Under the pieces are notes generated by a model that saw nothing but the letters and a program-made list of their open reading frames with translations, was not told the DNA's origin and did no database searches. A stretch of 64,000 bases of DNA from Yersinia bercovieri ATCC 43970 (GTDB taxonomy: Bacteria > Pseudomonadota > Gammaproteobacteria > Enterobacterales > Enterobacteriaceae): NCBI RefSeq assembly GCF_013282745.1, contig NZ_CP054044.1:496001-560000 (forward strand), given 5' to 3'. Below, one piece after another: positions 36,849-58,483 of this stretch. Positions within the stretch are counted from its first letter, which is position 1. Every line of letters begins with the position of its first letter. The translations under genes and the position numbers were made by a program.

Positions 36849-36994
36849 AAAAAAATAACCATCTTTAATTGGCATTCTAAAATAGAGCATAATAAATTCC
36901 TGATAGGTTTATCGAAAGGGATTGAGCCTCATTTAAAAGTCCACTTTTTCTTGTGTGTTTCGGCGCTGATATTTATCACAACCGTTTTAAACGG

Positions 36995-37531: not shown

Positions 37532-37601
37532 CGCCTGTTTCCTCAATTTAGAGCCAGATTGCCGTTACTAAATCCTTGATCCTGCGCTCTCTGGCCTATT
37601 T

Positions 37602-38138: not shown

Positions 38139-38182
38139 CATCCTCTCCACACAATGCCAGCCCTGAAACAGGAAGCGCCTGG

Positions 38183-38911
38183 CTAAACCTTTTTCACAGC
38201 ACAGTTCCCGCCACGGCAACTGAACTTCAACACCGGGCGACCACCATAATCGTTGATATAGGTCAGATAGGGGGTTGTGTAGTGCCCGACTTTCACCTGA
38301 GTGCTACTTTTGGGCGACACCATCACTACATCAAATGCTTCATCCTCAGACTGTCGCTGGCTGCCCGCCAGGCCAATGACCGTGACGTAATAAGGTGTCG
38401 GGTTTTCTATCCGATAGCCGCTCCCCTCCTCATGCAAGATAAGTTGGTCTTGCCAGACAGCGCCGGGAGTGGTGACTATCCCTTTCGGACGATAAAATAA
38501 TTTGATTTTGGTCTGTAATGCTATTTGCAGCACATTGGGTTGATCGCTGCGGGGTGGAATTTCCCGCAGGTTAAAATAGAACAGTGATTCTCTGTCCTGA
38601 GGAAGCTGATTGGCATCTGGGGTTGACGACACCCGTATCATGCTTTTCATTCCCGGCTCCAGACGCTGTACCGGAGGGGTGACCACTAAAGGCCCCTGCA
38701 CCAGTTTCTGTTGGTGCTCTCCTTCCAACCAGACTTGCGCCAAATAGGGTAGTTGTTTGTTTTCATTGCTAATATTTAAAGTGATCGATTTGCTGTCTGC
38801 ATTAAATATGGCTCGAGTGCGATCTAACCCCACGGCAGCCTGTACCGCTGGATGTATCGCAAACAGCACTGTCATCGAAACCAGATTTAATACCTTATGA
38901 ATGCTTCTCAT
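38183..38911 (-). CDS. Periplasmic fimbrial chaperone (PapD family)
   Basis: A 242-residue chaperone that folds pilins by donor-strand complementation. The signal peptide ends near QAAVGLD. The conserved Arg of strand A1 is in DRTRAIFN, the FYFNLREIPP motif is present, and the Lys of the active cleft is in KIKLFYRPKG. Two Cys at the end (FSCRGGNCAVKKV) are an unusual feature, perhaps a disulfide. It lies between the usher and minor subunit genes. Confidence 0.93.
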   Translation of the reverse strand: MRSIHKVLNLVSMTVLFAIHPAVQAAVGLDRTRAIFNADSKSITLNISNENKQLPYLAQVWLEGEHQQKLVQGPLVVTPPVQRLEPGMKSMIRVSSTPDANQLPQDRESLFYFNLREIPPRSDQPNVLQIALQTKIKLFYRPKGIVTTPGAVWQDQLILHEEGSGYRIENPTPYYVTVIGLAGSQRQSEDEAFDVVMVSPKSSTQVKVGHYTTPYLTYINDYGGRPVLKFSCRGGNCAVKKV

Positions 38912-38946
38912 GTTGTCTTATCCTATCTATTAAGGCTGTGTGCCCA

Positions 38947-41514
38947 TTAATGCTTAGCTGCCGCAGTGGGTCCACAGGGCAACAGCAACTGCTTCCCATC
39001 TAAGTTCGACGGGATCGTAACCTCACAACGGGTCTGCCCGTCCCAAGCCACATCAAGCACCGTATTGGGGGTCACCCCACTCAACCAGGCTAGGCCACTG
39101 TCGCCGACGATCCCCAGTTCCCGGCCTTTTAGATCACGCACGCTGGCAGCAAATGGCGGGTATGTCCCATCTTTCAGCCGCAGAACCGCAAACAACCGCT
39201 CCCCTTTCAATACACCAAAATGTTGATAACCAATGGCACCATCGGTAAGTGCGGTTTCCACTACCCCTTGTGTTGCCTCTATGTCATCGGCCATATTGTT
39301 GATATCGACTCGCGCCGTGGTGCGGTAATAGCTGTTAACATCAGTCAATACCCCGATGCCCCGCGAATTAGTCACCACCCGGCCATCATCTATCGGTACG
39401 CCACTGACTCCGTCGGTATCGACCATTAAGCGGGTACTGCCGTTATAGCCACCAGAGTGTAGTGCCGCACCTTTGCTTGTTGCCGTCACTCCTCCGGTGG
39501 CGCTTATCCCCAAAGAGCTGTAGCTGTTCTCCGCCATTGCCACATTACCGGTAAGGTTTGCCAAAGGACTGTTGTGGGTGTACATACCACTAAACTGACT
39601 GCGCGCAGCCTGGCCATTGCCCTGATCCCGCCCGGCGCTCAGGTTGTAGCTGTCGAGCTGCCCGACAGAAGCGGAATATCCCACGCGCTGCCCGATCCGT
39701 TTCCCGCTGTAATCGCTACTGTAACTGGCCGTTCCTTTTCCTATCGGTACCGACAACGTCAAATTAATGGCGTCATCATAACGTTCCATATCACGCTCCA
39801 GATACCGACTGCGGCTGCCAGTCGCGGTCAAAGAGAGACCCTTCAAGCCGAGTGACGGCAGATCAAACCAGGTGTTAAGGCTAACGCCATACTGGTCAGT
39901 ACCACCGTGATCCCAATAGTTCTGGTGTTCATAATTGAGGCTAAGGGATAGCGGCAGAGCCAACTCATCAAACCGCTTGCTGACATTGATCTGATAACGC
40001 TCTCTCTGACGGGTATTGTTATTGTCTCGAAACCGGGTATCTAAATACTGCTGCATGGACATATAGTCATGCTCGGAGAAGCGATATCCGGCAAAGTTCA
40101 CATCAGTATTGGCATCATCAAAATGCTTGGAGTAACTGATATGCCATGATTTACCTTCCCGCCGCCCTTGTACGGGTAAGTTTGCAAATGATTGGGTGAC
40201 ATCTAGTGCCGCAGTACCAAATTGAAAGAGATCACGACCAGCCCCTAGCGCCAAGGCCTGATAATCATCCGACACCGTTGTACCGCCGAACACCGACCAA
40301 CTGTTAGATATCCCCCATGATGCCTCTCCCATGGTAAAGAGCGGCCCTTCGGTATGACGGTTCCAGGTTCTGGGCTTCCCGGTGGCGACCTTATAGCGAA
40401 CCTGGCCCGGACGAGTCAGATAGGGCACCGATGCCGTCGTCACACTAAAGGTCTGCACTTCACCATTTTGCTCGAGCACCCTCACATCCAATTGACCACG
40501 GATGCCACTGTCTAGATTCTGGATACGAAATGGTCCGGCTGGGACCATACTGTCGTAAACCATACGTCCCTGCTGAGTTACCGTAACTCTGGCGTTGGTT
40601 CTCGCCACCCCGATGATTTCAGGCGCATAACCACGCAAACGCGGTGGTAGCATGCGCTCTTCGCTGACAAGGCTAACGCCAGAGTAACGCCATGAGTCGA
40701 ACAGGTTAGAATTGACATAGTCTTCACCCATAGTCAGCAGCGCTTCAATCATCGGTAGTGGGCGGTACAGATAAACCCGAGTCAGATCAAAATTATGCTG
40801 TGAAGCTTCTCGGCCACTAGCCCGGAAGTAGCTGCCCTGGTAGTCTCCCCGCAGACGCCATGCCCCCAAATTCCCACCCAGCGTCCCACTGAGGCTTGCA
40901 TTTTGCTGCTGCCCATTACCCTGAGTTTTTATCATCGTGCTATTGATGTTGTAGTCCAACATCACCCCAGGAATGCCATTATCCCAACGGGAGGGGGGTA
41001 ACCAAGTCGCATCTGAATATTCCAGCCACGCCTTAGGCATATTGATATTCAGGGTGCCATTGCTGATATCACCTTTCAAAGTGGTGCCCTTCAGCGGTGT
41101 GAAATCGATACACTGCCCCTGATGCCAAACACCTACCCGCTTGATGGACTTTTCTGTCAAACCCAGATGGCTAAGCAACTCTGGCGATAGGCAAGCCTCT
41201 GGCATACTCGGGGAAGATGAAGTCTCTGCGGCTACCGGGTTAATATAGAAAGGAATAGCAATATCATTTCCTAACCTTTCACCATTCAATTTCACTTGCA
41301 TCTGGTATGTGCCGGGCAGAATATACCCCTCCCTTGAGAATCGGGAGAAGTCTATATTCTTCTTATCATCCGTATCGAGAAGGTCAGTATTAAACTCCAC
41401 TGAAAATGCTTTGATAGAAAATAGCGCCATAATGACTAAGGCGGATACTCTATTTATCTTCAGTACACGATTTATGTTCAATACACGATTTATGTTCAAT
41501 ACACGCTGATTCAT
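38947..41514 (-). CDS. Outer-membrane fimbrial usher
   Basis: An 855-residue FimD/PapC-family usher. It has an N-terminal domain (VEFNTDLLDTDDKKNIDFSRFSREGYILPGTYQMQV), a beta barrel with LPPRLRGYAPEIIGVARTNARVTVTQQGRMVYD (plug region start), and a C-terminal domain with a Cys pair (TRCEVTIP, LLLPCGP). The N terminus before the signal-peptide core contains three near-identical six-residue units (RVLNIN, RVLNIN, RVLKIN) encoded by 18-base tandem repeats, an odd extension of the signal peptide. It follows the major pilin gene after two hairpins. Confidence 0.94.
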   Translation of the reverse strand: MNQRVLNINRVLNINRVLKINRVSALVIMALFSIKAFSVEFNTDLLDTDDKKNIDFSRFSREGYILPGTYQMQVKLNGERLGNDIAIPFYINPVAAETSSSPSMPEACLSPELLSHLGLTEKSIKRVGVWHQGQCIDFTPLKGTTLKGDISNGTLNINMPKAWLEYSDATWLPPSRWDNGIPGVMLDYNINSTMIKTQGNGQQQNASLSGTLGGNLGAWRLRGDYQGSYFRASGREASQHNFDLTRVYLYRPLPMIEALLTMGEDYVNSNLFDSWRYSGVSLVSEERMLPPRLRGYAPEIIGVARTNARVTVTQQGRMVYDSMVPAGPFRIQNLDSGIRGQLDVRVLEQNGEVQTFSVTTASVPYLTRPGQVRYKVATGKPRTWNRHTEGPLFTMGEASWGISNSWSVFGGTTVSDDYQALALGAGRDLFQFGTAALDVTQSFANLPVQGRREGKSWHISYSKHFDDANTDVNFAGYRFSEHDYMSMQQYLDTRFRDNNNTRQRERYQINVSKRFDELALPLSLSLNYEHQNYWDHGGTDQYGVSLNTWFDLPSLGLKGLSLTATGSRSRYLERDMERYDDAINLTLSVPIGKGTASYSSDYSGKRIGQRVGYSASVGQLDSYNLSAGRDQGNGQAARSQFSGMYTHNSPLANLTGNVAMAENSYSSLGISATGGVTATSKGAALHSGGYNGSTRLMVDTDGVSGVPIDDGRVVTNSRGIGVLTDVNSYYRTTARVDINNMADDIEATQGVVETALTDGAIGYQHFGVLKGERLFAVLRLKDGTYPPFAASVRDLKGRELGIVGDSGLAWLSGVTPNTVLDVAWDGQTRCEVTIPSNLDGKQLLLPCGPTAAAKH

Positions 41515-41665
41515 AATTTATCACCGGAATAATTATCTGAATTCCGTATCATTAATTCCTGCTATTGACACGAGCGTATCCTTCCACACAGAAAAGTGAC
41601 CCATAAGTCATCTGTACGGATATAAATTTTATTTTCAGATGAGGTTATTATTTTTAAGTTAATTT

Positions 41666-41697
41666 GGCGTATTAATCTCACTGAGATGTAATACGCC
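41666..41697 (-). promoter_or_regulatory. Strong hairpin between pilin and usher genes
   Basis: GGCGTATTA-ATCTCA-C-TGAGAT-G-TAATACGCC: fifteen pairs with one bulge and a tiny loop. On the minus strand no long T run follows, so it may act as a transcript-stability element or partial terminator setting the pilin-to-usher ratio. Confidence 0.65.
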
Positions 41698-41777
41698 ATA
41701 ATTATTCCCTGGCTCTAGAAGAAAAACTTCCAGAAAGGCACAGTACAACATCACCTAAAACAGCCTAACCGTATCAG

Positions 41778-41814
41778 TTCAATCCCCTCATCCTATTATG
41801 GAAGAGGGGCTGAA
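41778..41814 (-). promoter_or_regulatory. Second hairpin just after the major pilin stop
   Basis: Arms TTCAATCCCCTC and GAGGGGCTGAA with one mismatch around a loop of 14 bases, starting three bases after the pilin stop on the minus strand. It probably protects the pilin mRNA 3' end. Confidence 0.55.
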
Positions 41815-41816
41815 AA

Positions 41817-42323
41817 TTACTTATAGGCGATGACAAAGTTAGTTGTAGCTTCAAAATTACCCACAGTAACATTGGTCGCTGCATCTGCTTTTTTGGCTTC
41901 TGCGGTATAAGTCAGAATATTGTCACCCGTCGGGTTCAGACCAAGAATAGGCTTGGCTGTACCAAAAGTGATGCCAGAAATAGCGATCCCCAACCCGGTA
42001 GCCGAACCATGAGTGGTCAGTAGATTTTTACCACTGAGCAGATCGGTACTGGCAAAGGTAATATCAGCCGTTTTTCCCGTTAAATTACAATTTTCCAGAT
42101 GGATCTGAAACTTCTTGGCGGTGACCACATTGGCATTCAATTGGGATGATGAAAGCTGACCAAATGGTACTTTGACATCCGTACCATCCTGACCTGGGGC
42201 TAAATTACATGGTGAATCTACCACTTCACCATTAAAGGTTATTTTTCCGTTATTACCTGCTGCTGTTGCGCCATAAGAGATAACACCCAGTACTGCAATA
42301 ATAGCTAATTTAGATACTTTCAT
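41817..42323 (-). CDS. Major fimbrial subunit (pilin)
   Basis: A 168-residue pilin with signal peptide MKVSKLAIIAVLGVISYGATAA, Cys pair (DSPCNLAPG and LENCNLTG), VPFGQLSSSQLN, and C-terminal FEATTNFVIAYK with penultimate Tyr. As the first structural gene, ahead of two hairpins, and with the sequence pattern of FimA-type pilins, it is probably the shaft subunit. A good AAGGAAATATTTTC site precedes ATG at 42323. Confidence 0.92.
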   Translation of the reverse strand: MKVSKLAIIAVLGVISYGATAAGNNGKITFNGEVVDSPCNLAPGQDGTDVKVPFGQLSSSQLNANVVTAKKFQIHLENCNLTGKTADITFASTDLLSGKNLLTTHGSATGLGIAISGITFGTAKPILGLNPTGDNILTYTAEAKKADAATNVTVGNFEATTNFVIAYK

Positions 42324-42555
42324 GAAAATATTTCCTTATTTATTTATAAAAATAGATATCAAACGTCATCTGATATGTCGATGTAACTCAACATGAAAAA
42401 GATAACGTCACCACGAATGAATAATGGTGTGACTTATCTATTCATCACTCACCACACCATCATTCAAAACATATTTTAAAAATAAGAGATCCCTCTGGAG
42501 AGTTTACGTCCCAGACTCAATTAATTTTAAAAAAATATTACCCTATAGATAACAA

Positions 42556-43137
42556 TTATCTATTGCCATTGAGTTCACATATCATGGCATTTAAAGAGTC
42601 TATTCCGGTACGCCGAAGCCCCCGTTGCTTATAGCGACTCACCGAGTTATATGACAGACCAAAATTATCGGCGATATAATGCAAATTCTTGCCACGTAGC
42701 AATTCACATAACACGGCTCGCTCTTTCGCCAGGTAAATGGTTGCCTTTTTACATTGCTGCTTATATTGCTGCGGCGTGCGACGCCACATAAGTCGCAAAC
42801 GCTCTGCCAATGATGCCAGTGGTTCACGAGCTGACAGCACCATATCAAACCCGGCAGCATCAAACATTCTTTTCAACACTGGCGTATCATGCAGTGTTAC
42901 GCTTCCTCGATGGCAATGTTTTGGCACAGACATCTCAAGCAAGCCGGCCATCTCTTCTGTTGTTCCTTTCGCCACACAAAGCAATAAAGTGACAATTGGC
43001 TGAATCAGTGCTTGATGTAAAGCATCCAGGGTCATAACTACCTGACAGTCTGATTTACCTGGCAAATTTTGGCATAAGCTCGCCAAACCCAATGCCGCAT
43101 GTGGGCATTCGGAATAAATTACGATACGTTTAGCCAT
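42556..43137 (-). CDS. LuxR-type regulator of the fimbrial operon
   Basis: A 193-residue regulator. The N terminus (KRIVIYSECPHAALGLASLCQNLP) has the pattern of a degenerate receiver domain without a clear phospho-acceptor Asp. The C terminus (AKERAVLCELLRGKNLHYIADNFGLSYNSVSRYKQRGLRR) is a LuxR-type helix-turn-helix. CTAAAGGAG precedes ATG at 43137. Gene order places it directly upstream of the pilin. It shares layout and N-terminal pattern with the regulator at 52667, which precedes the inverse autotransporter. Confidence 0.8.
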   Translation of the reverse strand: MAKRIVIYSECPHAALGLASLCQNLPGKSDCQVVMTLDALHQALIQPIVTLLLCVAKGTTEEMAGLLEMSVPKHCHRGSVTLHDTPVLKRMFDAAGFDMVLSAREPLASLAERLRLMWRRTPQQYKQQCKKATIYLAKERAVLCELLRGKNLHYIADNFGLSYNSVSRYKQRGLRRTGIDSLNAMICELNGNR

Positions 43138-45887: not shown

Positions 45888-46463
45888 CTAAAGCTGGCTT
45901 TTTTTATCATCCCAGACACCATAAAACCGTTGCGCGTTACTGGCTGTATACCATACCGTATGTCGAATATTACGGTGCCCCAAATAATCTTGTATCAACC
46001 GCGTGTCAACCCCACGGTCTGCCAACGCAAACCCACATGCATGTCGCAGCATATGAGGATGTGCTTGTACCGCTATTCCTGCGATAGCGCCCAATTGAGC
46101 TATCAGTTGATAGATTCGCTGACGAGAGAGTGGATTTCCCTGGCGGGATAGAAAGAGCCATTCAGTATGTGCGTTAAGAAAATCCCCTCTCATACCCAAC
46201 CATACTGTCAGAGCTCTCACCTCCTCATCCAGCAAAGGATGGATAGTGGAGAACCCCTTTTTAAGTCGATAAATACAGATCCGTTTCCCTATCAAATCGA
46301 TATCAGATAGCCTTAATTGTCTTAGTTCGCTGGCCCTAAATCCATGTAAAAAACATAGCGTGATAAGACAATAATCTCGTTCTGGATGAGAGCCAGCTTT
46401 GGCCGCCTGCAATAATGCTGTTACTTCATCCTGAGTTAAATGTTTACGTTTATGCGTTGCCAT
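45888..46463 (-). CDS. FimB/FimE-type tyrosine recombinase
   Basis: A 191-residue tyrosine recombinase of the short fimbrial-switch type, which inverts small promoter segments. The catalytic set is visible: Arg near 43 (GFRASELRQL), His and Arg of HMLRH near 137-140, His of GHRNIRHT near 163, and the nucleophile Tyr in VWYTAS near 172. Like FimB and FimE it lacks the N-terminal arm-binding domain of phage integrases. GAGGAAAGT precedes ATG at 46463. A fimS-like invertible segment lies at 50418-50731, about 4 kb away, and a fimbrial operon lies on the other side. Confidence 0.9.
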   Translation of the reverse strand: MATHKRKHLTQDEVTALLQAAKAGSHPERDYCLITLCFLHGFRASELRQLRLSDIDLIGKRICIYRLKKGFSTIHPLLDEEVRALTVWLGMRGDFLNAHTEWLFLSRQGNPLSRQRIYQLIAQLGAIAGIAVQAHPHMLRHACGFALADRGVDTRLIQDYLGHRNIRHTVWYTASNAQRFYGVWDDKKSQL

Positions 46464-48064: not shown

Positions 48065-50017
48065 ATGATGAAATCCCTTGCGACACCATCAGCACCTTCC
48101 CCCTCATTCTTGATTACCCCACTCACGTTATTGGTCTCTTTGATGTTTGGCTCACTGTTCCCTGTCATCGCTACCGCCGCCGATCCCGCGCCAGTCATCA
48201 GTAAATTGTTCTTAAGAGGTGACTTAGATGTAGGAGAGTCTCTTAAAGGTGATTACCGTTTTAGTGCCAACGGTGGCAATACCGTGGACAAATCCACCTT
48301 TAGCTGGGGTTATAAAGGCGAAACCGCGCAAAAGGTTGCCAACGGAACCATGATCGGCAGTACCGGTTACGTGACACCCCGCCTGCTGGTATCGGCCGAT
48401 ATCGGGCATGTGATGGAGCTATCGGTACAGGCGAAAAATGGCCTCGGCATCATTGGCAACACATTAACACTGGCCAGCGACAGCGAGGATCCACGCAATT
48501 CCACCGAGGAGGGTGATGGCGAAGGACGAGTGGGAGATCCGTTCTCGCCATTGGTCAGTAATTTGGCACTCACTGGCGTATTGGATGTCGATCAAATTTT
48601 GCAAGCGAGCTACAACTTCTCAGCAGGTCAGGGTGGCTCTGGGGACAAATCCACCTTTGCCTGGGGCCAAAAAGGCAGTACGGCAACTCAGGCTCCTCAG
48701 GGCCAAACGGTGACAACATCTGGTAAGCCCACCGGTTACACCATCGTTAAGGCTGATGCAGGAAAAGTACTGGAAATATCAGTACGGGCTAAAAATAGTC
48801 AGAATAAGATCGGTAATATACAAACTCTGGCAACTGATGCCAGCGCAGAAGAAGGTAACAAGACGACCGGCGGAAATGGACAAGGTGGTGTGACGAACCC
48901 GGATGGTGGCCCAGTGATCAGTAAGTTGACCCTCGCTGGCAAACTGGAAGTTGGGCAGTCGCTGACGGCCGGTTACACCTTTGAGAATGTAGGCGGCAAT
49001 ACCACTGACAGCTCCAATTATGCATGGGGTGTCAAAGGTAGTACTGCCGCAGCCGTTCCTTCCGGTCAACATGTGACCACTTCCGGCCAAGTACCCGCAC
49101 GCCCTCTGGTCGCAGCGGATGTGGGGACGGTAATGGAAGTGTCAGTGCAAGCACGGGACGGGTTGGATAAAACCGGCAACACCCTGACACTTGCGGCCGA
49201 TGCCAGTGCGGCAGAAGGTAATAATAGTACTAGTGGTAACAATGGTGCCGTCATTAACGGAAGTGGCAGTGGAACTGTTGCCACACTGGTGCCGAGTGTC
49301 AGTAGAACTACAGCTAAGGTAACAGAGACTATTACGCTGACGGTCACAGCCAAAGATGCGAGCGGGAATACCGCGGATGGGGCATCAATAAGCCTGACCA
49401 GTGTCTCAGCAACTAACCGCAAAGGTACGGCACAGACCCCCACATTGCTCATTAACGGGCAAAGCAGTTTCACTGGCACCACTAATCCATTGACGGTTAC
49501 CCTGACCGACCCTAATGGCAAGGGAGTAGCAACCAATCTCAACATCTTCAGTGATAGAGCAACCAGTTCGCAAAGTGTCACTTTTACCGTTTCAACCAGC
49601 CCAAATGCCTCAGGAGCTAATTTCTGGGGGCACATGTCAGATAGCGTGACCTACAGTCGTGCTATTTTCTACCGCCCACAACTTTATACTGAAAATGGTA
49701 GATATAGCTCAATAACTGCCGACAATGAGCAATGGTCGGCAGTCAGTAATACAACTGATGGCAACGCGAGCTGCAATGCACGATCTGGTGGCGGCACAAA
49801 CTTTCGTCTGGTTCTACCTCAGGGCGCAAGGACAGCGGGTTTGGTCACATTACAGGACTTCGCAGGTACCAGCGCCCTGAGAAACTCAGGATTCCCAACC
49901 AGCAAAAGCTATCTAGGCTGGGATATCACAAGCGTAGATCTTTCAAGTGGCAGTATATCTCCTGCTTCAGGCACGACTATTTATCTTTGCCAAGATGATG
50001 CTTATCTAAAGGGATGA
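48065..50017 (+). CDS. Secreted repeat protein resembling the inverse-autotransporter passenger (ZirS/ZirU-like)
   Basis: A 650-residue protein with a signal peptide (about 1-38, ending VIATAADPAP) and no beta barrel. It has three copies of a domain of about 110 residues, each with a pattern like PVISKL-L-G-L-VG-SL-A-Y-F, then STF-WG-KG, then VMEISVQAKN--GN-LTL. These are followed by an Ig-like domain (about 400-515) and a C-terminal domain with two Cys. The same repeat, Ig-like and C-terminal domains appear in the passenger of the inverse autotransporter at 53448. In Salmonella, ZirS and ZirU are secreted with the ZirT barrel. A similar role here is inferred. Confidence 0.75.
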   Translation: MMKSLATPSAPSPSFLITPLTLLVSLMFGSLFPVIATAADPAPVISKLFLRGDLDVGESLKGDYRFSANGGNTVDKSTFSWGYKGETAQKVANGTMIGSTGYVTPRLLVSADIGHVMELSVQAKNGLGIIGNTLTLASDSEDPRNSTEEGDGEGRVGDPFSPLVSNLALTGVLDVDQILQASYNFSAGQGGSGDKSTFAWGQKGSTATQAPQGQTVTTSGKPTGYTIVKADAGKVLEISVRAKNSQNKIGNIQTLATDASAEEGNKTTGGNGQGGVTNPDGGPVISKLTLAGKLEVGQSLTAGYTFENVGGNTTDSSNYAWGVKGSTAAAVPSGQHVTTSGQVPARPLVAADVGTVMEVSVQARDGLDKTGNTLTLAADASAAEGNNSTSGNNGAVINGSGSGTVATLVPSVSRTTAKVTETITLTVTAKDASGNTADGASISLTSVSATNRKGTAQTPTLLINGQSSFTGTTNPLTVTLTDPNGKGVATNLNIFSDRATSSQSVTFTVSTSPNASGANFWGHMSDSVTYSRAIFYRPQLYTENGRYSSITADNEQWSAVSNTTDGNASCNARSGGGTNFRLVLPQGARTAGLVTLQDFAGTSALRNSGFPTSKSYLGWDITSVDLSSGSISPASGTTIYLCQDDAYLKG

Positions 50018-50055: not shown

Positions 50056-50087
50056 ATGGGGCGTTTGGAAAAACAGCCCCATTTTTT
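50056..50087 (+). terminator. Terminator after the secreted protein gene
   Basis: ATGGGGC / GCCCCAT stem with a 13-base loop and a following T6 run, about 40 bases after the stop. Confidence 0.85.
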
Positions 50088-50417
50088 CTGCCCACCACAA
50101 GCCCCAAATCCCCCTCACTATCAACGCCAAACGGACTTAACTCCACAGCCCTCCCCTTCTGCGGTGCCATTAATTTTTAGGTTTTCTTATCTTCGTAAAT
50201 AGCGACAAACACTTTAAGTGGAGAGTGGTTATCAGCGGGGGGGGGAGACGAGAAATAGCAACTAACGGAGGATAAATTGAGTCAGCTTAATCACTGGAGT
50301 GATTTATTTCATAAATATAATTTTTATATTAACTAATATGAAACAATTCAAGAGGAAACAGTAACGCATTGATTTTAATTTATTTTTTAAAATAAAACGC
50401 AAAAAAATACGAGTCAC

Positions 50418-50436
50418 TTGGGGTCAAAATGACTAC
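50418..50436 (+). repeat. Left inverted repeat (IRL) of the fimS-like element
   Basis: TTGGGGTCAAAATGACTAC, the exact reverse complement of 50713-50731. It begins TTGGGG, as do the E. coli fimS repeats (TTGGGGCCA). Confidence 0.9.
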
Positions 50437-50712
50437 TTAACTATGACATAACTCAATAATTGTGCAAGTAAGATACGTATTTTTTTATTATTTTGTTAAG
50501 AATTAATTCAACGATTTGACTTATATGAAAATTATTCCTAGGGCTAGCTTATTGAGCCGCTATTGTCGTTGCTAAGCCCCATAGATTCCCACAGCGCACA
50601 TCTTACCTTCCCTCACACAATCTCGAAATAAAATCGCAATAAAAACCAAAATATCAAAATAAAAAACCGTTAAAAATCAAAAAATAAAAGTATAAAACCA
50701 GAAATGTGCTGG

Positions 50713-50731
50713 GTAGTCATTTTGACCCCAA
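50713..50731 (-). repeat. Right inverted repeat (IRR) of the fimS-like element
   Basis: GTAGTCATTTTGACCCCAA, perfect partner of IRL. The match stops sharply on both sides, and no flanking target-site duplication is visible. Confidence 0.9.
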
Positions 50732-50823
50732 AAGACCATGCGCCCTTCTCAATAACGGCATCCGCGCCTGGATTATTTGGTTTTTATCGCAACGGTTAAC
50801 CGCCAGCAGAAAAGGAGTGTCCC

Positions 50824-51261
50824 GTGAATAAGCAGAACAACAATCAAATAAAAGGTCGTCAAAGCAATCACGGTGATTACTACCTGCCGGCCTGCCTTGC
50901 CCACCTCGGCAGCCCCCCGTTATATATGGCCGTAGCCTATTGGGGATTGCTCAAAAAGTCCCCGTTTACGCGCGATGACCTCAGTGCGGCTTTCCATATT
51001 ACGGTGCGACGAGCGGCTGATGTGATGACCTATATCTATATCGAACGCCAAAATTGTATTACCAGTAAAAAGTCGTTGGTCAACATCGGTAGTGGCCACT
51101 CTTGCCTCTATTTACAGGTGCTGGCAGTCGCTGAACCTGCCCCACCCCGTCAGGCATTTCGCCCCCCGGAGCGCCGGACATCCAACGCCTATAACAAAGA
51201 AGGGCAGCAAGAGCTATGGCACTGGCTCCTGACACGTCCAGCGGGAGGTGATCCTGAATGA
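50824..51261 (+). CDS. CaiF/GrlA-family transcriptional regulator
   Basis: A 145-residue regulator. YYLPACLAHLGSPPLYMAVAYWGLLKKSPFTRDDLSAAFHITVRRAADVMTYI is the family core with a helix-turn-helix. Members include CaiF (carnitine genes) and GrlA (LEE activation), so this is probably a positive regulator of the linked surface genes. The start is GTG at 50824 with AAAAGGAG eight bases before. It is the first gene after the invertible element and overlaps the next gene by ATGA. Confidence 0.85.
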   Translation: MNKQNNNQIKGRQSNHGDYYLPACLAHLGSPPLYMAVAYWGLLKKSPFTRDDLSAAFHITVRRAADVMTYIYIERQNCITSKKSLVNIGSGHSCLYLQVLAVAEPAPPRQAFRPPERRTSNAYNKEGQQELWHWLLTRPAGGDPE

Positions 51262-52670
51262 TCTCATCTACCGCCACCATTAGCGTCACCCTGCACAACA
51301 CTTGCCCATTCGCACTTGAGGTTCGTGCCAGTGGCAAGTTGTGCCATCAACTCCCCCAGGGTGAGTGTTTTTCGCTACAGATAGCACCAGACCAGCCATT
51401 TTGCTTACGGATCAGTGGGGTAGGGAAAAGAATGCCTCACCACTGGCCAGAGAGACTGCAACAGATACGTGATAACTGGCGATATAAGCTCACAACAGAG
51501 AGAGCTGAGGCCTCCCTTATGGGTGACAGCCTCTTGCGATTAACACCGGAGGAGCGTGACATGCTCACCGGTGCGCAGGATAACGTCTGGCAAGATAGTG
51601 ATGACCGCGCCATCTTTGGTACTGAGTTATGGGACATCACAACAACAGACCGCCACTGGAGTGTGCAGGCGCGACCAGATGTGTTGCACCGTTTGCCACT
51701 ATCCCAACCAGTCGAGATCTGGCAACTCAGCCTATTACCCGGCAAGCCAACACCAGATATTGAGCCACAAGACGCCATCTGGCACATCAGACCATCACAG
51801 CAACAGGGCCAGATAGTGCGCCTGCATGCCGGGCAACGCGTACTCAGCGCCTGCCAACATCTTAAAGACATCACCCTGCAACCCAGTACCGAAAGTAACC
51901 TGCGGCCCCCCTACTCACTTGAGGAGGCATTCAGCTTCTGGGTGAGGGTTCCCGGCGGTATTCCTACCGCCAGTGGGCGCCCAAGCTGGCGGCTCTGGAA
52001 CACATTTAGTCGCAGTTGGTTAGTCAGCAGTGACCAGCAACTGCAGATCATACCGGACATCGGGCCGGAAGTGCCCGGCGCACATTGGGATTGCATCTGG
52101 TCGGAAAGAGGTTTTATTCGACTGATCAAAGCTGATGGTTCTGGCGCGCTCACCCTACAGGCGGACAGTGTCGGCCTAAGCAAAGGTGAGGGCACTTTAT
52201 GGCGAGAAGAGACCTTCTATCCCACATTCAATCTGCTCTATACCGGCCAGCAGTTTAGCCTGATACAGGTTGCAAACGGACGCTATTTAATCGCCACTGA
52301 CCAAGGTGCGACCACCAGCCCCTACCCCACCACCAAACCCTTACTGCCGTTGCAGTGGCAACCCATATCCAGAGATGCCGGTCGCCTTAGCGTTCAACAC
52401 CCTACATTAGGGACGCGGTGGTTAGCCGCCGGCTCGCGCAGTTTAGTCAATAGCGCCGGACGCGCAGTGGTATTAGAGAAAAAGCCGGTTTCAGGATCAC
52501 TTTGGCAGCTTTGTTGTATCACCGGACACCAGGGATTTTTGTTACGCAGCCAGCATGCTGGCGGGCATTTGGCGGATATGAATGGGCAACTATCGGTCGT
52601 TGCTGGCATACCACGGGATGCTTTCTGGGCTGGCATTGCGCCCGAAATAACATCGGCAGGAGTTCTATGA
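51258..52670 (+). CDS. Unknown 470-residue protein, translationally coupled in the adhesin operon
   Basis: I do not recognise this protein. It has no signal peptide or membrane helix. It is rich in Trp (many SFW, HWD, WR segments) and beta-like, with repeated patterns such as FSLIQVANGRYLIATDQG and GFLLRSQHAGGHLADMNGQ that resemble beta-trefoil (ricin/fascin-like) repeats. The start overlaps the CaiF/GrlA stop (ATGA) and its stop overlaps the LuxR start (ATGA), so it is made with both regulators. A sensor, chaperone or cytoplasmic lectin-like role is possible. Confidence 0.7.
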   Translation: MISSTATISVTLHNTCPFALEVRASGKLCHQLPQGECFSLQIAPDQPFCLRISGVGKRMPHHWPERLQQIRDNWRYKLTTERAEASLMGDSLLRLTPEERDMLTGAQDNVWQDSDDRAIFGTELWDITTTDRHWSVQARPDVLHRLPLSQPVEIWQLSLLPGKPTPDIEPQDAIWHIRPSQQQGQIVRLHAGQRVLSACQHLKDITLQPSTESNLRPPYSLEEAFSFWVRVPGGIPTASGRPSWRLWNTFSRSWLVSSDQQLQIIPDIGPEVPGAHWDCIWSERGFIRLIKADGSGALTLQADSVGLSKGEGTLWREETFYPTFNLLYTGQQFSLIQVANGRYLIATDQGATTSPYPTTKPLLPLQWQPISRDAGRLSVQHPTLGTRWLAAGSRSLVNSAGRAVVLEKKPVSGSLWQLCCITGHQGFLLRSQHAGGHLADMNGQLSVVAGIPRDAFWAGIAPEITSAGVL

Positions 52671-53353
52671 TGAGCACTTTATCTTATGCATCGAAGGTTG
52701 TCTCAGACACAGACATCAATGAAGACGTGATAATCAAGCAGCATCGTATTGTCGTGATTGGCAGTAATCATTTTCGTTCTACAGGGCTTCGAGCGCTGTT
52801 GTCACAACTTCCTGAGAAATCGGAGGTTTTGTGCGAGGTAGCCTCAGTCATGGCTTTCCACTCCCTACCTTTTGCCTTACGTGTCCGCACAAATTTATTA
52901 ATTATTCATCCAGATAGTTTTGAAGAGCAAGATCTCAGCGGTATCGCTTTCCTCACCCTATTTTTACGCATCCACCCACATTGCCGGGTATTTATGATGG
53001 CCGATGTGCCCAGTACCGCGTTGCTGGCTATCTACCATGCCCTTGGCGTAGCCACGATGTTGCCTGCCCGAGGCCCTCTGGACGTATTACAAGCCACCCT
53101 ACGGGCCGGGTTATTACAGACCCAAAAGCCAACAACAGAGTTACCGAAACTGACACCTCGGGAATTAACCGCGCTTCAGAGCTTATTAGCAGGCATGTCC
53201 GTTGCCAAGCTCGCCCGCCAGTTAGGGATTTCTTGTAAAACCATTTACACCCAGCGCAGTAATGCCTTGCAAAAACTCGGTCTGCGCCGACCTCAACATA
53301 TGTTCGATCGCAATGCTCTGCCTTTGAAGCAATTTATTTATCAATACCGCTAG
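52667..53353 (+). CDS. LuxR-type transcriptional regulator of the adhesin operon
   Basis: A 228-residue regulator with an N-terminal receiver-like region (HRIVVIGSNHFRSTGLRALLSQLPEKS) that lacks an obvious phospho-acceptor Asp pattern. A C-terminal LuxR helix-turn-helix follows (LTPRELTALQSLLAGMSVAKLARQLGISCKTIYTQRSNALQKLG). AGGAG precedes ATG at 52667, which overlaps the previous stop. ATG at 52670 is the alternative. It resembles the fimbrial regulator at 42556 in size, layout and N-terminal pattern. Confidence 0.85.
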   Translation: MMSTLSYASKVVSDTDINEDVIIKQHRIVVIGSNHFRSTGLRALLSQLPEKSEVLCEVASVMAFHSLPFALRVRTNLLIIHPDSFEEQDLSGIAFLTLFLRIHPHCRVFMMADVPSTALLAIYHALGVATMLPARGPLDVLQATLRAGLLQTQKPTTELPKLTPRELTALQSLLAGMSVAKLARQLGISCKTIYTQRSNALQKLGLRRPQHMFDRNALPLKQFIYQYR

Positions 53354-53447: not shown

Positions 53448-56393
53448 ATGAGTACATCAACTAAACCATATCGGGTAAAGGTTATCACATGGGGCACTAT
53501 TGCCGCCCATCTGTCCCTTCCCCTAACCCTGGCTTTCACTCCGGCTAATGCGAACATGTTGCCTCGCACCAGCCAGCAAGGAGATGAACGCCTGGCGGCT
53601 CTTCCTACCATGCCCTATGTACTAAAACCGGGCGAAACAGTGGATATGGTTGCCAAACAGCATAATTTAACTTTAGCGCAACTGAAAAAAATCAATCAGT
53701 TACGCACTTTCAGTAAACCCTTCGCCAAACTGCAAGCGGGTGATGAGCTAGAGATCCCTCAGGCCCAGTCAAATCTCGGATTAGCCCCTGAGAATACAGC
53801 GCTGACTGATACGCAAACCACTGAACGTAATTTGGCCAAAACAGCCACAACAAGTGCTCAGATGCTAAATAGTGGTGATAAAGCGGCAGCCCGCCAATTA
53901 CGTGGGCTGGCGGTTGGCAATGCCAATCAGGCAGCCAATAGCTGGCTTAACAATTTCGGCACCGCTCGCCTACAGGCGAATGTTGATGACCGTGGAGATC
54001 TCGACGGCAGTCAATTCGATATGCTGATGCCTTTCTATGATACGCCATCACAAATGGCCTTCACGCAGTTTGGCATACGTCGGATCGACAAACGCACCAC
54101 CGCCAATCTGGGGATTGGGATCCGCCATTTTATTGACGACTGGATGGTCGGTTACAACCTCTTCCTCGACCGCGATATCACTCGCGATCATACCCGCGTC
54201 GGTGCTGGTGCCGAATATGCCCGTGACTACCTGAAACTGGCGGCAAACGGCTACCTGCGTTTGAGCGATTGGCGTGACTCCCCAGATTTCAGCAGCTATA
54301 GCGAACGTCCGGCAACCGGATTTGATCTGCGGGCAGAAGCCTACTTACCCTCACTGCCACAGTTGGGGGGGAAACTGATGTATGAACAGTACTTTGGTAA
54401 TGATGTTGGGTTGTTTGGCAAAGATAACCGGCAACAAAACCCGGCGGCCATCACTGCGGGCATCAACTATACCCCGATCCCACTGGTCACGGTCGGTATT
54501 GACCGCAAACAAGGAAGCGCCGGTAACGGCGAAACGCTGTTCAACCTTGGCGTCAACTATGAGGTCGGCACACCATGGGCCAAACAGATAAGCCCTGATG
54601 CGGTCAATGCGCGCCGTACTCTGCAAGGTAGCCGCAATGATTTGGTCGAACGTAATAACCAAATTGTACTGGAATACAAAAAACAGGATGTTATCAACCT
54701 GTATGTATCCAACAATGTTAGCGGTCGTGCCGCTGAGACCAAACAACTTGTCGTGAGTGTGACCTCAAAATATGGCCTGAGAAACATCCAGTTTGATCAG
54801 GGCGCACTGGCCGCTGCCGGTGGGAAAATTATTCCTCAAGGCCCTAGCCAGTTTGCCTTACAGTTACCGCCGCAACCTTCAGGTGGCAATAACTGGACCA
54901 TCAGTGCTATTGCCAGCGACGTCAAGGGGAACACATCTAACCGCGCCGTGACACTGGTGCAGTTGCAAGACACCCCTGCTACTATCAGCGGCACTTGGAC
55001 CCCAGCGGCAAGTACCAAGCCCGCGGATGGTAATAGCGCCGTCCTTTTGACTCTGACCTTAAAAGACGCGGCAGGCAACCCACTGATCGGTCAGGCGAAT
55101 AACATCACCCTGAAGAAAAATACTCTGGGTGGCTCCGGCAGCGAACCCACACTCAGTGCCCTGACTGAAACCGGCCCTGGGATATATCAAACGACAGCAA
55201 CTGCAGGCACCAATTTCGGCGTATTGACGTTAACACCGGAGATCCAGGGCACGCAGTTAGCACCAGCCACCATCACCTATACTGACCCATCATCCACAAA
55301 ACCATCAGTGTCTAACCTGATCCTGCTGGGTGAATTGGCGGAAGATAGCAAACTGTCGGCAACCTACACCTTTACCCAACCGGCGGGCGGGCCTGCCGCA
55401 ACGGATGCCTCAACCTATCAATGGGGTGAAAAAGGGGCAACAGCGGCCAACGTCGCTAACGGTTCAGCCGTGGCAACCTCTGGGCAAGTACCGGAATACC
55501 TATTGAAATCGACTGATGTCGGTAAAGTGATGGAAATTTCGGTACAGGCGAAAAATAGCCTTGCGGTTACCGGCAATACGCTCACGGTGGATTCGGCCTC
55601 GGCCGACACCAATACCAACAAAACCACGGGCGGCGAGCAGGGTAAAGTCACCGGGTCAACGGTGGTGACAACACTTGAAACAGTGACCGACGCCAACAGT
55701 ATGAAGGTGGGTGAAACGATAAATCTCACTGTCACCGCGCTAAACAAAAACAACCTGCCGGTTTCTGGTGCCACAATAAAGGTACAGGCAGTATCGGCCA
55801 GTTCGCGCAACGGTCAGGCTGAAACAGCCACGCTACAGGTTAATGGGAAACCACTGACCGATGACGTTACCACGGACGGCGATGGAAAAGTACAGGTAGC
55901 CCTGACAGATCCAACCGGTATAGGGTTGAAAACAACCCTAACCAGCAGTACCAATGGCAGCAGCGGTACCCCCGTCAGTAAAAATAATGACGTTATCTTT
56001 ACTGTGTTCACCAGCCCGGATAGCCCTGTAGCCGATTACTGGGGGCATATGGATGAGACAATAATAGTAGATGGCGTAATCATTAAACGGCCAAAATTGG
56101 CAGCGGAAGTTGCAGGAAGTCAACAAATAGATATGAATAATGAGGAATGGGCATACGCTAACTTTACTAATGCCTCTGCTCATTGTACTTTACCCACAAA
56201 AGAGGATTTAGTTGCATTATATAATGCCTATCCGACGGGAAGTATTACCAATGCGCATGGATGGCCAAGTGAAAGCAATATTCTTTATTGGTCAGGTACC
56301 ACTGAGGGATCAACAGTTTGGGCTACTGACATGACGCTAGGGAGAACAGTCCTGATAACGAAGGAAAAGATTCAACTCGTAACTTGCCTCTAA
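53448..56393 (+). CDS. Inverse autotransporter adhesin (intimin/invasin family, ZirT-like)
   Basis: A 981-residue outer-membrane adhesin. The order is: signal peptide (about 1-36, ending TPANANM); LysM-like domain (about 55-105: YVLKPGETVDMVAKQHNLTLAQLKKIN); intimin-type beta barrel (about 150-400: FDMLMPFYDTPSQMAFTQFGIRR, FNLGVNYEVG); Ig-like passenger domains; one copy of the repeat domain shared with the protein at 48065; and a C-terminal C-type-lectin-like domain with two Cys (HCTLPTKEDL, LVTCL). CAGGA lies ahead of ATG at 53448. The last gene of the regulator operon, it is followed by a perfect bidirectional terminator. Confidence 0.92.
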   Translation: MSTSTKPYRVKVITWGTIAAHLSLPLTLAFTPANANMLPRTSQQGDERLAALPTMPYVLKPGETVDMVAKQHNLTLAQLKKINQLRTFSKPFAKLQAGDELEIPQAQSNLGLAPENTALTDTQTTERNLAKTATTSAQMLNSGDKAAARQLRGLAVGNANQAANSWLNNFGTARLQANVDDRGDLDGSQFDMLMPFYDTPSQMAFTQFGIRRIDKRTTANLGIGIRHFIDDWMVGYNLFLDRDITRDHTRVGAGAEYARDYLKLAANGYLRLSDWRDSPDFSSYSERPATGFDLRAEAYLPSLPQLGGKLMYEQYFGNDVGLFGKDNRQQNPAAITAGINYTPIPLVTVGIDRKQGSAGNGETLFNLGVNYEVGTPWAKQISPDAVNARRTLQGSRNDLVERNNQIVLEYKKQDVINLYVSNNVSGRAAETKQLVVSVTSKYGLRNIQFDQGALAAAGGKIIPQGPSQFALQLPPQPSGGNNWTISAIASDVKGNTSNRAVTLVQLQDTPATISGTWTPAASTKPADGNSAVLLTLTLKDAAGNPLIGQANNITLKKNTLGGSGSEPTLSALTETGPGIYQTTATAGTNFGVLTLTPEIQGTQLAPATITYTDPSSTKPSVSNLILLGELAEDSKLSATYTFTQPAGGPAATDASTYQWGEKGATAANVANGSAVATSGQVPEYLLKSTDVGKVMEISVQAKNSLAVTGNTLTVDSASADTNTNKTTGGEQGKVTGSTVVTTLETVTDANSMKVGETINLTVTALNKNNLPVSGATIKVQAVSASSRNGQAETATLQVNGKPLTDDVTTDGDGKVQVALTDPTGIGLKTTLTSSTNGSSGTPVSKNNDVIFTVFTSPDSPVADYWGHMDETIIVDGVIIKRPKLAAEVAGSQQIDMNNEEWAYANFTNASAHCTLPTKEDLVALYNAYPTGSITNAHGWPSESNILYWSGTTEGSTVWATDMTLGRTVLITKEKIQLVTCL

Positions 56394-56440: not shown

Positions 56441-58483
56441 CTATTCAAATATAGTAGGAAGGGTACATGCTCCAGAGCTAGCGGAAGACACATCACAATA
56501 TTTTAATAGCTCAGATGATTTAAAAGATGTCCCTGCAACTAAAACATTATATGTTACATGTGCTGTTCCCTGACAAAGCGCGTAAATATTTTTTGGTGGC
56601 ACAATAAACGCAAAATCATCATCATCTATATTCCCTGCTACTATTTCAAGTGGATCAGATTTATAGCTAGCAGCAGGTATCTTCTCCCCGTCCTCGTCCT
56701 CGTATCCTTCTGTTCCTTCGAATATCAACTCAATCATCTGGCCGGGAGCAATATTTTCATATCGTTTCACCCTAAAATCACAACCGCTATATTTCTTCAC
56801 TGAACTGACAGTTATCACACCAGTATCATTCTTCCAAGTTGGCGCAGTCAATCCATTTTTACCACCGGGATTACTATTATTAGAAGTTATAAAGATTCCT
56901 GTTTTGGGTGACAGAGACATTATACTATTAGTGTCAGGTAATGGACGTCTAACAGTATATTGTGCAATCATATCCCCCTCACCAGCTAATTTTATATTTG
57001 CAACCGTCAATTTCACTGTTATATCAGCAGCAGGTATAGCAATTAAGGGAGGATTAGTAACAGTTGCCTTCCCAACTGTCACGGAAATAACATCCCCAAT
57101 TGCAAGATAGGCCTCATCTTTACGTGTCTTGTATGGTATTGTTATATCTGCTTCTATTAAAACTGCAGGGCCAGTTATTCTATTAATCTCACCCTGTGCG
57201 CTGGTGATAGTTAATGCTTGCAAATTCCCGTTTTCTTTTGCAGGTTGGTCTGGATTAGGGCCACCAAGAATCGTTAAATTAACTGGTACAGTTAACGGCG
57301 ATGAGGGTTCTTTGAGCAGCGAACTCTCCCCTCGACTTACTGTGTAATAAATAATAACAGATTTTTGATCAAATGGCTTAATCTGATTATAAACTGCCTC
57401 AGTTGAGTAAATTGGGTTTTGAGTCGGATCTTCTAGTGGAGGGGAAGTAGATATTAATGTGCCATCACCAGCTAAGCCATCATCCTGTTTAAAAAAGACC
57501 CTAATGATATCATCTAGTGCAGGATTAGCATAGATAGGTATATCTATATGCAGAGGATGTATAAATTCATCCGTAATAAGATTTTTCTTGATATCAGGTA
57601 GCACCGGCTCAACTAAACCAGTTGGCAGGTCGCCAAAGGCCAGTTGAACTATAGTATGTTCAGCTTGAGGACTCACAAAGCCTGCGGGGTTGGTTATCAT
57701 ATAAGTAAAATAAAGAGGGCCATCTGCAAAAGTATCAAATAAACCTTTATCAAAGGTGACCTCTTTATTCTTACCGCTCTCACCATCTCCAATTGTGACG
57801 GTATCGACAATCTGAAGGCTAGCAATGGAGTCACCTAAATATAGGTCTATTTTATCACCATCACGCTGCTTATAATAAGGTACTAATATAGCAGGTAGTA
57901 CTTTTTTTGAGGGGGCAGTGGGATCATCTTTCAGATTTAAGTCTGTTATTCCATTATCAACGTATTTTTTATCAAATTTCAACAGGGGCATAACATCACC
58001 ACCCGAGGAACTCGTCAATACATTGAAATTTAGCCTTGTAACTTGCTGTTCATCCAGATTTAGGGGTATCAAAAAAGGAATAATAAAATGCTCTTTCTCA
58101 CTGAGGAGTGCAACATCTAATGTAAAAGAAAGTCCGTTAGCAATCTCTGCGGCAGTCCATGCAGGATCTTTCGCTCCCTTTCCTGCAAAATAATCCGTTG
58201 GATCGTCAGCGTCTGGTGTGGCACTCTCGTCTAATCTCAAATAAATTTGAGGATACCCAGCTCTATTGCGAGGTTTCGTCCCGTTCTCCACTAAGCCCTG
58301 CCACGAACCGACATTCACGGTAAGATTATTCTGAGCTATAGTATCTCTAGATATATATCCATTAGCCAAGAGGCCTACTATAGAATACTCAGGAGAGTTA
58401 ACTATAGGAACAGAAGAATCAATACTCGGATGTTGAATGTCATCCTTTTCTTTATCCGCAGTAACTTTAGATTTTTTCTTCAT
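56441..58483 (-). CDS. Unknown 680-residue protein with Ig-like segments
   Basis: No signal peptide. The N terminus is Lys-rich (MKKKSKVTADKEKDD), followed by several stretches with an Ig-like beta pattern (for example HIDIPIYANPALDDIIRVFFKQDDG, ADITIPYKTRKDEAYLAIGDVISVTVG). The C-terminal 100 residues contain four Cys. Its segments resemble those of the large protein at 60069 (PIYANPALDDIIRV and PVYTGIKLGDIVTLKW). ATG at 58483 has TTGGAGATA upstream. Function is unknown; a surface-layer or released binding protein is possible, but the export route is unclear. Confidence 0.7.
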   Translation of the reverse strand: MKKKSKVTADKEKDDIQHPSIDSSVPIVNSPEYSIVGLLANGYISRDTIAQNNLTVNVGSWQGLVENGTKPRNRAGYPQIYLRLDESATPDADDPTDYFAGKGAKDPAWTAAEIANGLSFTLDVALLSEKEHFIIPFLIPLNLDEQQVTRLNFNVLTSSSGGDVMPLLKFDKKYVDNGITDLNLKDDPTAPSKKVLPAILVPYYKQRDGDKIDLYLGDSIASLQIVDTVTIGDGESGKNKEVTFDKGLFDTFADGPLYFTYMITNPAGFVSPQAEHTIVQLAFGDLPTGLVEPVLPDIKKNLITDEFIHPLHIDIPIYANPALDDIIRVFFKQDDGLAGDGTLISTSPPLEDPTQNPIYSTEAVYNQIKPFDQKSVIIYYTVSRGESSLLKEPSSPLTVPVNLTILGGPNPDQPAKENGNLQALTITSAQGEINRITGPAVLIEADITIPYKTRKDEAYLAIGDVISVTVGKATVTNPPLIAIPAADITVKLTVANIKLAGEGDMIAQYTVRRPLPDTNSIMSLSPKTGIFITSNNSNPGGKNGLTAPTWKNDTGVITVSSVKKYSGCDFRVKRYENIAPGQMIELIFEGTEGYEDEDGEKIPAASYKSDPLEIVAGNIDDDDFAFIVPPKNIYALCQGTAHVTYNVLVAGTSFKSSELLKYCDVSSASSGACTLPTIFE

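What the first reader, a model, noticed from the sequence alone, without database searches (positions are those of the whole stretch)
50418..50731. fimS-like invertible promoter switch ahead of a regulator/adhesin operon
Perfect 19-base inverted repeats beginning TTGGGG bound a segment of 314 bases, the same length as E. coli fimS. Internal stretches (AAGATACGTATTTTTT, ATATGAAAATTATTCC) resemble my recollection of fimS. A promoter-like pair at the left end points away from the operon, so the drawn orientation looks OFF. The operon encodes a CaiF/GrlA activator, a LuxR-type regulator and an inverse autotransporter, not fimbriae. A fimS-type switch driving an intimin-family system would be a new use of the element.
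Basis: partly seen in the sequence, partly recalled or inferred. Interest (0 to 1): 0.92.

Follow-up and report, generated by a model that had tools for sequence, protein, structure and literature searches.

The report
FimS-type promoter switch for Yersinia adhesin
A Yersinia genome carries what looks like a true relative of the E. coli fimbrial on/off DNA switch, placed not before fimbriae but before regulator genes and an intimin-family surface adhesin; flipping itself has not been observed, and a switch of this kind before another adhesin is already known.

Summary
Perfect 19-bp inverted repeats (50418-50436, 50713-50731) bound exactly 314 bp; the longest such pair in 100 shuffled windows was 15 bp. 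The segment is single-copy, so not a MITE. It shares with fimS the length, the repeat core, a weak promoter-like pair pointing out of the left end, and two IHF-type sites at matching places (both together in 0 of 4000 shuffles). The genome's only close FimB relative lies 4 kb away (45888-46463), active-site residues kept. Y. thracica keeps the whole arrangement; both repeat arms carry the same base change, and the recombinase has the lowest dN/dS (0.045) of eight genes compared. Both genomes are assembled OFF; no inverted copy was seen. Downstream: CaiF/GrlA regulator, unknown protein, LuxR-type regulator, inverse autotransporter. "New use" is overstated: in uropathogenic E. coli, ipuS drives a LuxR-type regulator plus an autotransporter, and hyxS a LuxR-type regulator (PMC6083910). 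New here are the cargo (GrlA plus intimin family), the genus, and a possible second GrlA-linked switch ahead of type IVb pilus genes.

The parts
50418..50436 (+). left inverted repeat (IRL), 19 bp, core TTGGGGTCA
50713..50731 (-). right inverted repeat (IRR), perfect reverse complement of IRL
50418..50731 (.). 314-bp fimS-type invertible element, drawn in the OFF orientation
   Evidence: single copy
50440..50467 (-). putative weak promoter: -35 TTGCAC 50467-50462 (3 of 6), 16-nt spacer, -10 CATAGT 50445-50440 (4 of 6) with extended -10 TG; reads left (away from the operon) as drawn; both hexamers identical in Y. thracica
   Evidence: not listed by the generic scan
50362..50374 (-). IHF-type site I outside IRL (AATCAATGCGTTA, 0 mismatches); at -55, against -45 in MG1655 fimS
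50509..50521 (-). IHF-type site II inside the element (AGTCAAATCGTTG, 1 mismatch; 0 mismatches in Y. thracica); at +92, against +83 in MG1655
50057..50087 (+). terminator-like hairpin plus T run behind the upstream exoprotein-like gene, separating it from the switch
   Evidence: (z -4.0, 0 of 200 shuffles fold as well)
45888..46463 (-). FimB-type tyrosine recombinase, 191 aa, R-H-R-Y residues kept; likely the invertase
50824..51261 (+). CaiF/GrlA-type transcriptional regulator, first gene behind the switch (starts 93 bp after IRR; AAGGAG at 50812-50817)
51258..52670 (+). 470-aa protein of unknown family, overlaps the GrlA gene by 4 nt; in the protein search only the window's own and a Y. thracica protein were found
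   Evidence: structure model uninformative
52670..53353 (+). LuxR-type (GerE) regulator; start chosen by me within the longer frame 52502-53353
53448..56393 (+). inverse autotransporter (intimin/invasin family; best NCBIfam models YrIlm, Ilp, IatC, all below their curated cut-offs) with LysM, Ig-like and InvE_AD adhesion domains
48065..50017 (+). upstream RatA-like (BIg21 + InvE_AD) protein without beta-barrel match; possible partner exoprotein, not behind the switch

Best explanation
This is a fimS-family phase switch. A FimB-type recombinase (most simply the one at 45888-46463) exchanges strands at the two 19-bp repeats, helped by IHF bound at two sites, and turns the 314-bp segment round. 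As drawn, the promoter at the left end points away (OFF). After inversion it would lie just inside the right repeat and drive a GrlA-type regulator, a 470-aa protein, a LuxR-type regulator and an intimin-family inverse autotransporter, so that only part of a population makes the adhesin and its regulators. Shown: repeats, single copy, homology and anatomy shared with fimS, conservation in a second species, an intact and constrained recombinase, gene order. Inferred: inversion in cells, the promoter's activity, IHF binding, which recombinase acts, and the operon being one transcript.
For: 19-bp perfect arms against at most 15 in 100 shuffles; exactly the 314 bp of MG1655 fimS, 8 of 9 core bases the same, outer left flank AAATACGAGTCAC against AAATACAAGACAA in MG1655. 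IHF-type sites on the same strand at -55/+92 against -45/+83 in MG1655, in both Yersinia; both together within 15 nt of the MG1655 places: 0 of 4000 shuffles for each species. Element, 470-aa gene and this recombinase co-occur in the same 2 of 25 Yersinia genomes. Y. thracica: 314 bp, 21-bp arms, and at arm position 12 the same A/T difference in both arms. The first 73 bp (promoter end) are 68/73 identical there, positions 74-295 only 141/222. Recombinase dN/dS 0.045, lowest of eight genes compared; it passes both NCBIfam tyrosine-type DNA invertase models, best 304 bits against cut-off 221; the tree places it beside FimB, support 88/86.
Against: No copy in the other orientation was seen; both genomes with the element are assembled OFF, and only one genome per species could be searched. 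The -35/-10 pair matches consensus at only 7 of 12 positions (MG1655 fimA promoter pair 10 of 12), and its 16-nt spacer differs from the 18 nt in MG1655 (sequences). Similarity to one fimS relative (L033) is not above shuffles (42 of 500). IHF site II in the window has one mismatch and alone is met by 186 of 4000 shuffles. The recombinase lies about 4 kb away with an aquaporin gene and another gene between; the tree fork is not above the strict support mark and the tree warns of long branches.
Confidence: 0.86

Rival explanations
1. Locked relic: a fimS-derived element that once flipped and is now fixed OFF, the operon being transcribed from elsewhere or silent.
For: Both species are assembled in the same orientation; the promoter pair is weak, 7 of 12.
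Against: Arms perfect in both species, with the same change in both arms; recombinase under strong purifying selection; promoter-end DNA conserved well above the rest; the four operon genes are open with dN/dS 0.17-0.30.
Confidence: 0.08
2. The switch is real but also has a second target: in the drawn orientation the leftward promoter makes RNA antisense to the upstream RatA-like gene, giving an either/or choice between two surface proteins.
For: As drawn the promoter points at the 3' end of the 48065-50017 gene, about 400 bp away; that protein is related to the passenger of the autotransporter (43% over 292 aa against the Y. thracica autotransporter).
Against: A minus-strand terminator-like stem lies at 50048-50033 before the gene, though weak (z -1.05); no RNA data; the fimS promoter also points away when OFF.
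Confidence: 0.1
3. Inverted repeats of a small mobile element (MITE) or a chance palindrome.
For: Paired repeats around a few hundred AT-rich bases are typical of MITEs in general (recalled).
Against: One copy in the genome, found in 2 of 25 Yersinia genomes, in the same gene order, homology to fimS including IHF-type sites, arm length beyond all shuffles.
Confidence: 0.01
4. The element is flipped by a recombinase other than the one 4 kb away.
For: FimB-family enzymes act on distant switches in UPEC (PMC6083910, passages); the genome has 12 Phage_integrase matches, 11 of them over the cut-off.
Against: At E<=1e-20 the recombinase query finds only itself in this genome; the same pairing of recombinase and element in Y. 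thracica.
Confidence: 0.08

Closest known systems
E. coli fimS (type 1 fimbriae switch) with FimB/FimE
   Same: 314 bp, repeat core TTGGGG[C/T]CA, promoter-like pair just inside one end, two IHF-type sites in matching places, FimB-type recombinase nearby, OFF orientation relative to the downstream operon
   Different: 19-bp instead of 9-bp arms; one FimB-type gene instead of fimB plus fimE; both IHF-type sites shifted by 9-10 bp; weaker promoter pair; operon encodes regulators and an inverse autotransporter, not fimbriae
ipuS - ipuR/upaE of UPEC CFT073 (PMC6083910)
   Same: FimB-family switch driving a LuxR-type regulator and an autotransporter adhesin
   Different: 260 bp with 7-bp arms; distal repeat lies in the ipuA gene; no GrlA-type gene in the passages read
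hyxS - hyxR of UPEC (PMC6083910; region seen)
   Same: FimB-family switch before a LuxR-type regulator; an annotated autotransporter gene hyxB follows further on
   Different: 278 bp with 16-bp arms between hyxR and ipbA in CFT073 (taken to be hyxS by place and arm length); no GrlA or inverse autotransporter gene annotated in that cluster
GrlA - inverse autotransporter - ZirU cluster on a Salmonella plasmid
   Same: CaiF/GrlA regulator directly before an inverse autotransporter (39% identity over 768 aa), with ZirU-family and invasin-domain genes
   Different: EAL gene upstream; only chance-length repeats (10-11 nt) before the GrlA gene, and no match to the LuxR or 470-aa protein in the 10-kb stretch
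YrIlm / SinH / RatA inverse autotransporter systems
   Same: Autotransporter matches YrIlm, Ilp and SinH models; upstream protein matches RatA-like models
   Different: Scores are below the curated cut-offs, so it is a relative, not a named member

Membership tests
fimS-type invertible element | terminal inverted repeats with TTGGGG core, 314 bp from end to end | tested here: met
   length and repeat of fimS also stated in PMC9820224 (passages)
fimS-type invertible element | outward promoter inside one end | tested here: inconclusive
   pair present and both hexamers conserved in Y. thracica, but 7 of 12 to consensus and not listed
fimS-type invertible element | IHF sites outside IRL and inside the element | tested here: met
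   same strand, matching places in both Yersinia, MG1655 and L035; L037, L038, L039 with one mismatch at site II; L033 lacks site II, L043 lacks both. IHF consensus recalled; binding not tested
fimS-type invertible element | sequence homology inside the arms | tested here: met
   2 of 500 shuffles (MG1655), 1 of 500 (L037), but 42 of 500 (L033)
fimS-type invertible element | inversion in cells | not testable with these tools
   no reads; both genomes with the element in one orientation
FimB/FimE recombinase | short tyrosine recombinase with R-H-R-Y active site | tested here: met
   residue set named in PMC6083910 (passage)
inverse autotransporter (intimin/invasin) | IAT_beta barrel domain | tested here: met
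   PF11924, E 2.8e-104
CaiF/GrlA regulators | PF07180 over its cut-off | tested here: met
   52.2 bits against 25
ipuS-like switch | LuxR-type regulator plus autotransporter behind a FimB-family element | tested here: met
   gene content behind the element; works like it, but the element is closer to fimS in length and core, and the autotransporter is of the inverse class
MITE | many dispersed copies | tested here: not met
   one copy

The most novel reading that the evidence does not exclude
GrlA-type regulators are a recurrent cargo of FimB-family switches: besides the Yersinia inverse-autotransporter locus, a genome of 1.66 Mb in the same order (G336) has 16-bp repeats spanning 318 bp directly before a GrlA-type gene, a gene that I read as HU-like, and type IVb pilus genes, with a FimB-type recombinase about 18 kb away. 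Switching a master regulator rather than a structural gene would make whole surface programmes, intimin-like ones included, all-or-none in each cell.
Probability: 0.4. Interest if true: 0.65.

Novelty: new variant of a known kind. Interest (0 to 1): 0.52.

Why it matters
In the listings of ten library searches (the lists were capped well below the number of papers found) and in the passages read from six papers I saw no fimS-type switch before an intimin-family gene or in Yersinia; subscription journals are mostly not held. If it flips, intimin/invasin-type adhesion in this Yersinia would be phase-variable and regulator-driven, extending the ipuS pattern (switch, regulator, autotransporter) to the inverse autotransporters and to another genus. 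The two IHF-type sites, each displaced about one helical turn from those of fimS, also offer a natural test of the spacing that the recombination complex tolerates.

Tried and rejected
Nucleotide search of 5426 E. coli genomes with the element and flanks gave only three chance-level hits: homology to fimS is too diverged for blastn and rests on arms, alignment, flank and IHF-type sites. MITE: rejected by copy number. Another strain with the reverse orientation: none reachable; no match in plasmid records, and the genome collections hold one genome per species. Of 17 loci with a GrlA-type gene that I scanned for repeats (window, L014, L015-L025, L073, L075, L081, L082), 3 have arms of 16 nt or more before the gene (window, L014, L073); in the 11 Photorhabdus loci none of 11 nt or more lies in the 2.5 kb before it. 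The genus pattern search matched 2 of 25 genomes, the reversed control 1 of 25. The family pattern search matched 13 of 295 genomes, the reversed control 4 of 295; I read 6 of the 13 as fimS relatives (L033, L035, L037, L038, L039, L043) besides the window, and dropped 6 (L032, L034, L036, L040, L041, L042) because the sequence inside did not look like fimS. Structure of the 470-aa protein: mean pLDDT 31, not used. In the recombinase tree, loci listed with a stop in the match (L049, L057, L059, L060) and L048 were left out before, L058 was listed with a stop too but was used, and loci holding two genes yielded the same row twice (L055/L067, L056/L066); only the placing beside FimB is used. The minus-strand terminator-like stem is weak.

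Full report
What is there. Perfect 19-nt inverted repeats stand at 50418-50436 and 50713-50731 and bound 314 bp. In 100 dinucleotide shuffles of the window the longest repeat pair at 150-700 bp was 15 nt. The element occurs once in the 4.40-Mb genome. The genus is Yersinia: a genome of the same genus (G023) has the element at the same contig place as the named Y. thracica contig L014. The species is probably Y. bercovieri, because the first 15 kb of contig 2 match a Y. bercovieri plasmid at 99.8%; this rests on a plasmid alone.

Is it fimS? MG1655 fimS, located by the same kind of scan, is 314 bp with 9-bp arms TTGGGGCCA. The window has TTGGGGTCA. Just outside the left arm MG1655 reads AAATACAAGACAA and the window AAATACGAGTCAC. 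Inside the arms, similarity to MG1655 was reached by 2 of 500 shuffles, to L037 by 1 of 500, to L033 by 42 of 500. IHF-type sites (recalled consensus, up to one mismatch) lie on the minus strand at -45 and +83 in MG1655 and at -55 and +92 in both Yersinia; site I has no mismatch in either, site II has one in the window and none in Y. thracica. Within 15 nt of the MG1655 places, shuffles met site I in 12 of 4000 for either species, site II in 186 (window, one mismatch allowed) and 10 (Y. thracica) of 4000, and both together in 0 of 4000. Site I is also found at -44 in L033, L035, L037, L038 and L039 but not L043, and site II at +82 or +83 in L035, L037, L038 and L039 but not L033 or L043. In Yersinia both sites lie 9-10 bp, about one helical turn, further from the left arm. 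IHF is reported as needed for normal fimS inversion (PMC9096935, passages).

Promoter and orientation. The minus strand reads TTGCAC, 16 nt, CATAGT with an extended -10 TG, inside the left arm. It matches consensus at 7 of 12 positions, against 10 of 12 for the MG1655 pair, and the generic scan does not list it; that scan lists another leftward pair further in, at chance level, whose -35 is not kept in Y. thracica. The TTGCAC and CATAGT hexamers are identical in Y. thracica, and the first 73 bp of the element are 68/73 identical there, against 141/222 for positions 74-295. As in MG1655 the pair points away from the downstream genes, so the drawn state is OFF; Y. thracica is drawn OFF too. Thus no inversion was seen. 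The published ipuS promoter has 4 of 6 matches in each hexamer (PMC6083910, passage), one more in all than here.

Recombinase. 45888-46463 (-) encodes a 191-aa tyrosine recombinase (PF00589) that passes the cut-offs of both NCBIfam tyrosine-type DNA invertase models (304 bits against 221, 235 against 222). The active-site residues line up with FimB and FimE. At E<=1e-20 it is the only such gene in the genome. The tree sets it beside FimB with support 88/86, below the strict mark and with warnings on long branches. Between the two species its dN/dS is 0.045, the lowest of eight genes (lysR 0.085, aqpZ 0.107, the other five 0.17-0.30). Element, 470-aa gene and this recombinase (95% identity) are found in the same 2 of 25 Yersinia genomes; a third genome (G018) has two other FimB relatives (53% and 61%) without the element. 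In the 19-nt arms the two species differ at one position, 12, and it is changed in both arms, as expected if the arms are kept alike.

Operon. Behind the right arm, 93 bp on, come a CaiF/GrlA regulator, a 470-aa protein of no family found, a LuxR-type regulator and an inverse autotransporter with LysM, Ig-like and InvE_AD domains. The first three overlap by 1-4 nt if the LuxR-type gene starts at 52667 or 52670. Upstream, a RatA-like protein with a signal-like N-terminus (my reading) and an InvE_AD domain (48065-50017) ends before a strong terminator-like hairpin. On a Salmonella plasmid a GrlA-type gene also precedes an inverse autotransporter (39% identity over 768 aa), a ZirU-family gene and an invasin-domain gene, without a long repeat pair: the regulator-adhesin module occurs without the switch. 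In Salmonella ZirT is a translocator for the exoprotein ZirS (PMC2270342, passages); that the RatA-like protein plays such a part here is a guess.

A second GrlA-linked element. Genome G336 (1.66 Mb, same order) has 16-nt arms TTAACAAAATGGGCTA, 318 bp end to end, at L073:3359-3676, before a GrlA-type gene (3799-4287), a short gene that reads like HU (my reading, not scanned) and pilus genes (TcpQ, secretin, PilO, T2SSE, T2SSF, PilS). The longest arms in 500 local shuffles were 14. A FimB-type recombinase (58%) lies about 18 kb away. This came out of scanning 18 loci; the other pairs of 14-15 nt there were L077 (15, beside a FimB-type gene), L018 (15, an A-rich run) and L023 (14, A-rich).

Novelty. 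ipuS and hyxS are published FimB-family switches on LuxR-type regulators, ipuS with an autotransporter (PMC6083910: abstract and passages; PMC6458436: passages). CS18 and MR/P fimbriae are reported to have promoter-inversion switches too (PMC9820224, passages). So a switch of this kind off fimbriae is known. An inverse autotransporter and a GrlA-type regulator behind one, and the genus, I did not see in the listings of ten library searches or in the passages read. The one paper that held all three terms (PMC12525524) names ipuS/UpaE as its example (passages). Verdict: a new variant of a known kind; the switch is very likely real by anatomy, its flipping untested.

Noticed in passing
L073:3359-3676 (genome G336): 16-bp inverted repeats, 318 bp end to end, directly before a GrlA-type gene and type IVb pilus genes; possible second switch of this kind.
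   Followed up: partly
35808-43137: Chaperone-usher fimbrial operon on the minus strand (adhesin, subunits, chaperone, usher) with a LuxR-type gene at 42556-43137 (below Pfam cut-off); no TTGGGG-type repeat near it, though the FimB-type recombinase lies about 3 kb beyond.
   Followed up: partly
60069-63596: 1175-aa protein whose repeats match stretches near the GrlA-type gene in 10 of 11 Photorhabdus loci (pieces of 28-44% identity); no NCBIfam match.
   Followed up: no
56441-58483: 680-aa protein without Pfam or NCBIfam match, conserved beside the operon in Y. thracica (60%).
   Followed up: no
L077:11905-12216 (genome G142): 15-bp inverted repeats, 312 bp end to end, between a FimB-type gene and a short gene; looks like another FimB-family switch.
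   Followed up: no
L054 (own genome, contig 2, 1-20000): The matching Y. bercovieri plasmid stretch is annotated with a TcdA/TcdB-type glycosyltransferase domain protein and a peptidase-domain ABC transporter.
   Followed up: no
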